A stretch of 64,000 nt of DNA, from contig NZ_JAAVUW010000001.1 in the NCBI RefSeq assembly GCF_018449605.1, forward strand, positions 806,001-870,000. The letters run 5' to 3'. A program made the translations under genes and the position numbers. Positions 28,400 to 61,914 of this stretch are shown one piece after another (positions within the stretch are counted from its first letter, which is position 1; each line of letters begins with the position of its first letter). The notes beneath the pieces are model-generated. The model was not told the origin of the DNA. It searched no databases and was given only the letters and a program-made list of their open reading frames with translations. The stretch is from Luteibacter sp. dw_328 (GTDB lineage: Bacteria; Pseudomonadota; Gammaproteobacteria; Xanthomonadales; Rhodanobacteraceae).

Positions 28400-29875
28400 T
28401 CAGCCCGGCCTGCGGAGCTTAAGACGCACGGGCACCGAACTGGGTGCCATGAAGAAGTTCAACACCTGCTTCGCCGGCGGCGCATCGGCGTCGGCTTCCA
28501 GTTCGAAGTGCCGCATGATCATCGACACCACGATCTTGATTTCGGTCAGCGCAAGGAACCGCCCCGGGCACAGGCGCGCGCCACCGCCGAACGGGAACAG
28601 CTTCCGTGAGGGATCTTCCTCCTTCGGCGGTCGATGCTCGAAGATCCAGCGCTCGGGACGGTACTGCTCGTGCTGCGGGAACTGCGTTTCGTCGAGACCT
28701 TCCCCGGCCGTCGAGACGATCACCGCCGTGTTCCTGGGGATGAACGTATCGCCGACAACACAGTCAGCGTTGCTCACCATGCCGATATACGGCGCCACGG
28801 CCCTGAGCCGCTGCGCCTCGCTGTGTGCGGCTTCGAGATACGGGAACTGCTTCATCATGTCCCAGTCGCGTACGAGCGTTGCCTCGCCGAGCACGGCATC
28901 CACTTCGGCGGTCAACGCGGCGGCGGCAGCAGGGTTACGGGCCAGGAGAATGAGCATCCAGGCGATGGAATTGGCCGTCGTGTCTTCGCCGCCGATCACG
29001 CTGAGGATGGCATTGCTGACCAGTTCTTCATCGGTGAAATCCGATTCCGGATTGTCGCTCGCGGCGATCATCGCCTCCAGCATGTTCCCGGGCTTGGCCT
29101 GCAGCTGTGCCTGCTGTTTCATGCGCGCACGGGTGTTGTCGATGAATTCGGTCACGGCCTGTTCGATTTCCATCGACGACTGCTCCGCTTCGCGGTCCAC
29201 CGGCAACTTGAAGTACTTCCAGTAATGGAACGACGCCGTGGTGCGTTGACCGAGGCGCTGGAACATGTTGTCGATATTGCGCTGCAGGGGGTTGCCATCG
29301 TCGTTGACCGCGTCGATGTCATGCCCCATCGCGATGCCGACGATCGTGTCGAGCGCCATGGCCTTGAGGTCGCGGCGCAGGTCCACCGGCTTGCCATCGG
29401 CCAAAGCTGTCTTCCAGCGCTCGAGCATCCGTTCGGTCATCACGACCATGGTCGGGAAGAAATTGCGGATCACCTCGGCATTCAGCCCGGCCATGACCAG
29501 CTTGCGCTGCTTACGCCACGTCTCGCCTTCGGCAGTGAAAACGCCACCGATGTTGAGGTCGTTCATGATCGTCTTCAGGCCGCCGCTTCGCCGGAAACCC
29601 TCCGGGCGCTCCCGCAGCACGTTGTTGACGGTAGTAGCGTCGGAGACGATCACCATCGGGTTACCGAAGACATTCAGCCGGAACATGGGCCCGAACTCCC
29701 GGACCCACCCCGTCAGCCTGAGGTGCATCTGACGGCCGCTCAACTGCAGTGCGTTACCGACGAACGGATGGCCTGCCGGGCCCGGCAGGTCTTCGATCCG
29801 GCGCGAGTAACTGAGGGCTGGCACAGCGGCATTCGTGTTCATGTCCATGCTCGGCTTCCTGGTCAAGGCGGTCAC
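28400..29875 (-). CDS. Cytochrome P450 (probable tailoring oxygenase)
   Basis: This 491-residue P450 has I-helix oxygen-binding GGEDTTANS, the K-helix pair EAQR, PERW, and the haem loop FPFGGGARLCPGRFLAL with the axial Cys. The N-terminus is soluble (LPGPAGHPFVGNALQL) with no membrane anchor. It starts at GTG 29875, overlapping the PKS stop by 4 nt (GTGA), which favours that start over the internal ATG ten codons later. In this operon it likely hydroxylates or epoxidises the polyketide. No ferredoxin partner gene is in the window. Confidence 0.95.
   Translation of the reverse strand: MTALTRKPSMDMNTNAAVPALSYSRRIEDLPGPAGHPFVGNALQLSGRQMHLRLTGWVREFGPMFRLNVFGNPMVIVSDATTVNNVLRERPEGFRRSGGLKTIMNDLNIGGVFTAEGETWRKQRKLVMAGLNAEVIRNFFPTMVVMTERMLERWKTALADGKPVDLRRDLKAMALDTIVGIAMGHDIDAVNDDGNPLQRNIDNMFQRLGQRTTASFHYWKYFKLPVDREAEQSSMEIEQAVTEFIDNTRARMKQQAQLQAKPGNMLEAMIAASDNPESDFTDEELVSNAILSVIGGEDTTANSIAWMLILLARNPAAAAALTAEVDAVLGEATLVRDWDMMKQFPYLEAAHSEAQRLRAVAPYIGMVSNADCVVGDTFIPRNTAVIVSTAGEGLDETQFPQHEQYRPERWIFEHRPPKEEDPSRKLFPFGGGARLCPGRFLALTEIKIVVSMIMRHFELEADADAPPAKQVLNFFMAPSSVPVRLKLRRPG

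Positions 29876-61914: not shown

What the first reader, a model, noticed from the sequence alone, without database searches (positions are those of the whole stretch)
29872..61914. A 10,680-residue trans-AT PKS/NRPS encoded by one gene, with no product I can match
One open frame carries seven KS domains, no AT, and a C-A-PCP-TE end. Reading the modules gives a partly unsaturated, hydroxylated and C-methylated chain capped with serine. Splitting of trans-AT assembly lines into several proteins is common, so this size in one chain is notable. I do not recognise the domain order as that of a characterised compound.
Basis: partly seen in the sequence, partly recalled or inferred. Interest (0 to 1): 0.85.

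Follow-up and report, generated by a model that had tools for sequence, protein, structure and literature searches.

The report
Single-chain trans-AT PKS-NRPS in a mobile operon
A Luteibacter bacterium carries, on a 39-kb inserted block, one enormous assembly-line enzyme that should build an unsaturated, methyl-branched chain joined to serine; related blocks occur in several related genera, and I found no described product.

Summary
One intact frame (29872-61914, minus strand) encodes 10,680 residues: seven KS, no AT, a C-A-PCP-TE end. The missing AT is in the next gene upstream (61907-65140): an acyl-hydrolase-like AT, a malonyl-type AT and an enoyl reductase. A P450 and a MATE exporter follow. 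The genus is Luteibacter.

Misassembly is very unlikely. Six other genomes of the family have the identical domain order in one frame, one of them a one-contig genome; a second one-contig genome has it plus one NRPS module. The longest exact direct repeat in the gene is 41 bp. A relative reaches 13,392 aa in one frame, so the size is typical here.

In two sister species the flanks adjoin without the four genes, and the Luteibacter copies are not one clade, so the block probably moves between species.

A serine-type A domain occurs in all ten seven-KS lines found; KS7 has lost a catalytic His in all ten. Product, starter and activity are unknown; MIBiG could not be searched. An orphan member of a known kind with a clear natural series of variants.

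The parts
29872..61914 (-). trans-AT PKS-NRPS megasynthase, 10,680 aa, one frame
57679..61914 (-). module 1: KS1-DH-KR-ACP; KS1 starts at residue 2, no loading domain before it
   Evidence: Pfam; KS triad CHH
53239..57477 (-). module 2: KS2-DH-KR-ACP
   Evidence: Pfam; CHH
50089..53043 (-). module 3: KS3-DH-ACP, no KR; the DH has Asp for Gly in HxxxGxxxxP
   Evidence: Pfam; CHH; DH motif
45622..49896 (-). module 4: KS4-DH-KR-ACP
   Evidence: Pfam; CHH
42082..45462 (-). module 5: KS5-KR-ACP
   Evidence: Pfam; CHH
36163..41964 (-). module 6: KS6-KR-MT-ACP-DH-ACP; MT core at 37954-38268
   Evidence: Pfam; MT nearest PDB chain DisA (6cca) 224 bits
33970..36012 (-). module 7: KS7 (Cys-Gln-His, predicted non-elongating) and ACP
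   Evidence: Pfam
30748..33885 (-). NRPS module C-A-PCP (PCP edge approximate); A domain 31024-32481 with serine-type pocket
   Evidence: Pfam; PCP by own profile; code DVWHMSLVDK
29929..30684 (-). terminal thioesterase, GWSLG nucleophile motif
   Evidence: Pfam
61907..64000 (-). AT-AT-ER gene, 1077 aa; runs past the window to position 65140 (genome C1:867907-871140); overlaps the PKS start by 8 bases
   Evidence: AT1 nearest PksD acyl hydrolase
28400..29875 (-). cytochrome P450; its GTG start overlaps the PKS stop by 4 bases
   Evidence: Pfam PF00067 E 5e-85
26999..28396 (-). MATE exporter
   Evidence: Pfam PF01554 E 4e-29
26201..26986 (+). Sfp/EntD-type phosphopantetheinyl transferase; resident neighbour gene, also present in two sister species without the block
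   Evidence: Pfam
26997..64000 (.). inserted block; its right edge lies beyond the window, at about 65,810
   Evidence: empty sites in G112 and G116

Best explanation
The locus is a complete four-gene trans-AT PKS-NRPS operon carried on a block of about 38.8 kb that probably moves horizontally. The upstream protein supplies malonyl units through its second AT. Its first AT probably removes dead acyl groups, and its ER may reduce some double bonds in trans. The single 10,680-residue chain is primed at KS1 by an acyl group of unknown origin, extends it up to six times (KS1-KS6), and installs several double bonds, a hydroxyl at the KR-only module 5 and a C-methyl at module 6. KS7 cannot condense; it only hands the chain to the next ACP. 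The C-A-PCP module then adds serine, and the TE releases an N-acyl-serine acid or lactone. The P450 oxidises the product and the MATE pump exports it. A resident Sfp-type transferase beside the block can activate the carriers. Shown by sequence: gene and domain order, catalytic residues, serine-type pocket, conservation, empty sites. Inferred: every chemical step, the double-bond pattern and the export.
For: Domain order. AT-AT-ER upstream and no AT in the chain. AT1 has GASL where a malonyl AT has GHSL and matches PksD at 212 bits against 84 for the next chain; PMC11775670 (passages) gives G(A/S/V)SL as the acyl-hydrolase motif and GHSxGE with xFHS as the malonyl motifs; AT2 has both of these (AT1 has only AFHS). 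KS-flanking linker PF22336 in all seven modules. KS7 Cys-Gln-His in 10 of 10 seven-KS lines. An A domain with DVWHMSLVDK in 10 of 10 seven-KS lines, though in G078 it is the second A domain. KS2, KS4 and KS5 carry VMYE at the loop where PMC11321453 (passages) reports VMYH in KSs that select unsaturated chains. MT nearest DisA. Overlapping or adjoining genes. Identical domain string in 6 of 15 other family neighbourhoods fetched, plus one more with an extra C-A-PCP. Empty sites in G112 and G116. One Luteibacter clade rejected, p-AU 2e-52.
Against: No chemistry was tested. Module 3 has a DH but no KR, and this DH has Asp for Gly in HxxxGxxxxP (so in 4 of 10 seven-KS lines), yet KS4 looks like a KS that accepts unsaturated chains; either a KR acts across modules or KS3 does not elongate although its triad is intact. 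KR6 has Cys for Asn in YxxxN, so its activity is less sure. No loading module explains the starter. The VMYH motif was established on a cis-AT enzyme. DVWHMSLVDK differs from the recalled serine code at one letter. One four-KS relative (G171) keeps His in its last KS, and two sibling lines (G090, G085) have no KS before the first C domain at all. The direction of the block event (gain here or loss twice) is inferred, and the flanks differ in other ways too: G112 lacks the stretch 66.5-67.8 kb, G116 lacks 22.6-26.2 kb and has extra DNA on the right.
Confidence: 0.75

Rival explanations
1. Modules 2-3 and 5-6 act as unsplit dehydrating bimodules in which KS3 and KS6 only pass the chain on, so the product has four extensions rather than six.
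For: Module 3 has DH but no KR. KS3 and KS6 are sister groups, each follows a KR-bearing module and precedes a DH. In G078 and G101 the KS6 module is also just KS-DH-ACP. PMC8456789 (passages) describes type A bimodules KS-KR-ACP-KS0//DH-ACP.
Against: KS3 and KS6 keep Cys-His-His in all 10 seven-KS lines, while KS7 has lost one His in all 10. Type A bimodules have a broken second KS in that paper.
Confidence: 0.35
2. The product is already described under another name and the gene cluster is simply absent from the libraries I could search.
For: MIBiG was not available; the paper library lacks most subscription journals; [quoted passage not shown]
Against: Eight searches aimed at these genera found no paper on such a cluster (listings of 69 and 74 capped); the one paper concerns other clusters (PMC12997852, passages). 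NCBIfam models of solanimycin proteins score far below their cut-offs.
Confidence: 0.15
3. The giant frame is a misassembly of several genes.
For: The genome is in 21 contigs, and KS2, KS4 and KS5 are 87-89% identical in protein.
Against: Longest exact direct repeat in the gene 41 bp; identical order in six other genomes, one of them a one-contig genome (G115), and the same order plus one module in a second one-contig genome (G104).
Confidence: 0.02
4. The line is decaying and makes nothing.
For: It is patchy in the genus (4 of 23 genomes have the AT-ER gene at this cut-off). In G171 the line is spread over several frames, and a second AT-ER gene in G071 has only MATE fragments and no PKS in the 60 kb fetched, so decay does occur in the family.
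Against: Here there is no stop in 10,680 codons and no loss of KS residues beyond the conserved KS7 change; four of five DHs keep HxxxGxxxxP, all five keep the second motif, and the carriers and TE keep their serines.
Confidence: 0.05

Closest known systems
trans-AT PKS-NRPS assembly lines such as bacillaene (pks/bae)
   Same: AT-less modules, KS-flanking linkers, separate AT and acyl hydrolase, irregular modules, KS0; KS3 matches a PksJ KS (4na1) at 626 bits, the best chain with a single KS, and AT1 matches PksD. That PksJ and PksD belong to bacillaene is recalled.
   Different: One chain instead of several; no loading module; different module order; serine at the end.
The polyketide synthase chains of PDB 7zma/7zm9/7zmc
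   Same: 7zma heads the list for KS1, KS2, KS3 and KS7 because two of its KSs match; among single-KS chains 7zmc is best for KS2 and 7zm9 for KS7.
   Different: Only domain-level similarity was tested; that these come from a trans-AT bimodule is recalled, and organism and product were not read here.
Dehydrating bimodules (hangtaimycin HtmA1 and others, PMC8456789)
   Same: KR module followed by a KS-DH-ACP module inside one chain.
   Different: KS3 and KS6 keep Cys-His-His; module 6 adds KR, MT and a second ACP.
Two-protein lines of Massilia sp. BJB1822, Pseudoduganella violaceinigra and P. violacea (L069, L072, L077)
   Same: AT-AT-ER gene first, KS1 of the same group, KS0-ACP-C-A-PCP towards the end, P450.
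   Different: Nine KS, three NRPS modules, split into two proteins between a KR and its ACP; no MATE found by my profile in the 60 kb fetched.

Membership tests
trans-AT polyketide synthase | No AT domain in the modules | tested here: met
   PF00698 finds none in the frame
trans-AT polyketide synthase | Free-standing AT in the cluster | tested here: met
   AT-AT-ER gene 61907-65140
trans-AT polyketide synthase | Remnant linker after each KS | tested here: met
   PF22336 RhiE-like linker in all seven modules
trans-AT polyketide synthase | KSs group by substrate with trans-AT KSs of known clade | tested here: inconclusive
   Nearest solved chains of KS1, KS2, KS3 and KS7 are, by recall, mostly trans-AT KSs; clade assignment (transATor) not available; KS4, KS5 and KS6 not searched
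non-elongating KS (KS0) | Active-site Cys kept, catalytic His lost | tested here: met
   KS7 Cys-Gln-His; activity not tested
type A dehydrating bimodule (modules 2-3, 5-6) | Second KS has a broken triad | tested here: not met
   KS3 and KS6 are Cys-His-His
type B dehydrating bimodule (modules 5-6) | Both KS elongating; order KS-KR-ACP-KS // DH-ACP-KR, split | tested here: not met
   Both triads intact, but the line is unsplit and KR6 precedes the DH
serine-activating NRPS module | Serine specificity code | tested here: met
   DVWHMSLVDK, 9 of 10 letters of the recalled code; activity not tested
solanimycin cluster (SolG, SolI, SolL) | NCBIfam cut-off scores | tested here: not met
   774 of 2200, 24 of 850 and 39 of 780 bits
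characterised MIBiG cluster | Same module order and high KS identity | not testable with these tools
   MIBiG, antiSMASH and transATor not on hand

The most novel reading that the evidence does not exclude
This is one member of an undescribed, horizontally moving family of single-chain trans-AT megasynthase operons (AT-AT-ER, one giant chain, P450, MATE) that diversifies by in-frame gain and loss of whole modules (from 3 to 7 KS and 1 to 4 NRPS modules in one chain) and by homogenisation between KSs of one chain, all primed at an N-terminal KS without a loading module.
Probability: 0.55. Interest if true: 0.65.

Novelty: new member of a known kind. Interest (0 to 1): 0.5.

Why it matters
A whole trans-AT pathway in four overlapping or adjoining genes on less than 39 kb is convenient for deletion and expression work. 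The related lines form a natural series with modules added or removed inside one chain, which lets rules of assembly-line evolution and engineering be tested on real examples. I found no description of the product class, and the lines are spread over several genera.

Tried and rejected
Misassembly was considered and rejected. Membership of the solanimycin family, suggested by NCBIfam names, was rejected because all scores lie far below cut-off. The PPTase was first taken as part of the cluster, then set aside as a resident gene because G112 and G116 carry it without the block. A plasmid search with the piece from the end of DH6 to ACP7 (ACP6b, KS7) found only matches below 60% identity in 1,346 records. 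Comparing the window's own flanks with the neighbourhoods of 11 other cluster-bearing genomes gave matches in two only: a left-flank gene about 8 kb from the line in G104 and a right-flank gene near the line in G115; the other nine gave none, so the place of insertion is not shared. Homogenisation of KS2/KS4/KS5 is only partly supported: one clade per position is rejected for KS5 (p-AU 0.010) but not for KS2 (0.14) or KS4 (0.08). Structure prediction, fold search and RNA tools were not used. Papers: only passages were read of PMC8456789, PMC7930024, PMC11321453, PMC11775670, PMC9040847, PMC11165876, PMC12306442 and PMC12997852, and the first of two parts of PMC10999986; all others were seen in search listings only.

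Full report
Observation. The frame 29872-61914 (-) is open from an ATG over 10,680 codons, with its stop at the end. Pfam on seven pieces gives KS1-DH-KR-ACP, KS2-DH-KR-ACP, KS3-DH-ACP, KS4-DH-KR-ACP, KS5-KR-ACP, KS6-KR-MT-ACP-DH-ACP, KS7-ACP and C-A-PCP-TE (carriers also placed). The whole genome has 17 PF00109 matches, seven of them in this frame, and seven PF00698 matches, none in this frame.

Surroundings. Directly upstream, overlapping by eight bases, lies a 1077-aa AT-AT-ER gene (61907-65140, so it crosses the window edge). AT1 has GASL at the nucleophile and matches the acyl hydrolase PksD at 212 bits, the next solved chain scoring 84. AT2 has GHSLGE and PFHS, the malonyl motifs given in PMC11775670 (passages). 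Downstream, in the same direction, are a P450 (28400-29875, four-base overlap) and a MATE exporter (26999-28396, three bases on). An Sfp/EntD-type phosphopantetheinyl transferase (26201-26986, +) faces the operon.

Catalytic residues. Of 136 KS domains found in this and related lines, three shorter than 400 residues (cut by contig ends) were dropped. In the alignment of the other 133, KS1-KS6 of the window are Cys-His-His and KS7 is Cys-Gln-His. Of the 10 seven-KS lines found, all have Cys-Gln-His in KS7; a four-KS line in G171 keeps His in its last KS. KS2, KS4 and KS5 carry VMYE in the loop where PMC11321453 (passages) reports VMYH in KSs that select unsaturated chains; that work used a cis-AT enzyme. 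The A-domain pocket letters DVWHMSLVDK differ by one from the recalled serine code; an A domain with the same letters occurs in all 10 seven-KS lines, though in G078 it is the second of three. The MT is nearest to DisA, so a C-methyl is likely. Four of five DHs of the window keep HxxxGxxxxP; that of module 3 has Asp for Gly, as in 4 of the 10 lines. KR6 has Cys for Asn in YxxxN, also seen in most of the relatives that have this KR; the pattern used there missed some rows.

Relatives. In the family, 18 of 233 genomes have an AT-ER match at E 1e-150 or better, four of them among the 23 of the genus. A named contig of equal length and place identifies one of the genus as Luteibacter rhizovicinus, hence the genus is Luteibacter; by the same matching, other holders bear the record names Dyella, Pinirhizobacter and Rhodanobacter. 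I fetched the neighbourhoods of 15 of the 17 others (not G227 and G230, whose matches are weaker, 56 and 51% identity). Six have the identical domain order in one frame (G115, G145, G086, G089, G188, G090); G104 has it with one extra C-A-PCP; four are cut by contig ends and agree as far as they go (G113, G085, G084, G174); four differ (G078, G101, G171, G071), and of these the G171 line is spread over several frames. G104 (4,757,936 bases) and G115 (4,485,268 bases) are one-contig genomes. One chain in G101 reaches 13,392 aa. Lines with three or four KS occur in G071, G101, G145, G090, G085 and G171; those in G090 and G085 have no KS just before the first C domain. In all 20 family lines examined KS is the first domain found and starts 26-118 residues after the stop upstream. 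In the order, 15 of 398 sampled genomes have a KS1 match at E 1e-150 or better, all in this family, one of them (G227) at only 56% identity. Outside it, three Oxalobacteraceae genomes carry a nine-KS line split into two proteins. Whole-chain identity to the six lines of identical order is 67 to 70%.

Movement. In G112, a one-contig sister genome without the PKS, the DNA is collinear up to window 26,996 and resumes at 65,810, with 22 bases between the two matches there; in G116 it ends at 26,986 and resumes at 65,816, with 27 bases between. The transferase gene is on the left side in both, so it is resident. The flanks differ elsewhere too: G112 lacks 66.5-67.8 kb; G116 lacks 22.6-26.2 kb and has extra DNA on the right. 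The AT2-ER tree rejects one Luteibacter clade (p-AU 2e-52; 19 rows, two long rows left out after a first tree of 21 rows). Gain by transfer is the simpler reading; loss in both sisters is not excluded.

Evolution inside the chain. KS1, KS3, KS6 and KS7 group largely by position across species, whereas KS2, KS4 and KS5 of a chain tend to group with each other (a quick tree with weak forks and long G236 branches flagged by the tool, in which the KS6 of G101 falls among the KS3s). A test on 24 rows (KS2, KS4 and KS5 of eight lines) rejects one clade per position for KS5 (p 0.010) but not for KS2 (0.14) or KS4 (0.08), so homogenisation is suggested, not shown. Window KS2, KS4 and KS5 are 87-89% identical in protein, yet the longest exact direct repeat in the gene is 41 bp.

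Mechanism. Shown: gene order, domain order, catalytic residues, conservation. Inferred: AT2 loads malonate, AT1 clears stalled carriers, KS1-KS6 extend, KS7 transfers, serine is added and the TE releases. Module 3 lacks a KR although KS4 looks suited to an unsaturated chain; either a neighbouring KR acts there or modules 2-3 work as a bimodule like those of PMC8456789 (passages), but the defining broken second KS is not met. The starter is unknown, since KS1 begins at residue 2.

Known or not. The library holds no paper with trans-AT, polyketide and the name Luteibacter, Dyella, Rhodanobacter or Pseudoduganella together. One search (Massilia) gave one paper, on other clusters (PMC12997852, passages). 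Searches gave no paper on such a cluster as far as their listings and the passages read show (69 and 74 listed 20 of 30 and 40 of 528); two searches were about bimodules and size. PMC11165876 (passages) mentions an uncharacterised interleaved PKS/NRPS cluster in L. mycovicinus. MIBiG was not searchable. I therefore file this as an orphan member of a known kind.

Noticed in passing
window 8510-18044: A selenocysteine locus: SelA (13519-14949, PF03841) and SelB (14865-16877, SelB domains), a tRNA-Sec gene (16891-16986) and an AIR-synthase-family frame that is probably SelD (16989-18044), with a molybdopterin oxidoreductase frame (8510-10975) nearby.
   Followed up: partly
window 20704-22593 (+): A 629-aa protein with no Pfam match and only weak NCBIfam beta-ketoacyl synthase matches; a divergent KS-like protein, 83% identical in DNA to a stretch in G104.
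   Followed up: partly
genome C1:661001-700000 (L006, L007): A second PKS/NRPS cluster in the same genome, with AT domains beside its KSs and many C-A-PCP modules over several genes.
   Followed up: no
G101 C1:3820001-3920000 (L053-L056, L116): Two one-chain lines (13,392 and 8,277 aa) in tandem, each with its own P450 and MATE, with identical KS1 domains: a recent duplication or conversion.
   Followed up: partly
G071 C34:250001-310000 (L119-L121): A second AT-ER gene with only MATE fragments and no PKS in the 60 kb fetched: possibly the remains of another such operon.
   Followed up: no
G236 C30:285001-405000 (L107-L112), Janthinobacterium fluminis: A much larger trans-AT cluster with chains of 10,051, 6,538, 5,533, 5,464 and 3,912 aa.
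   Followed up: no
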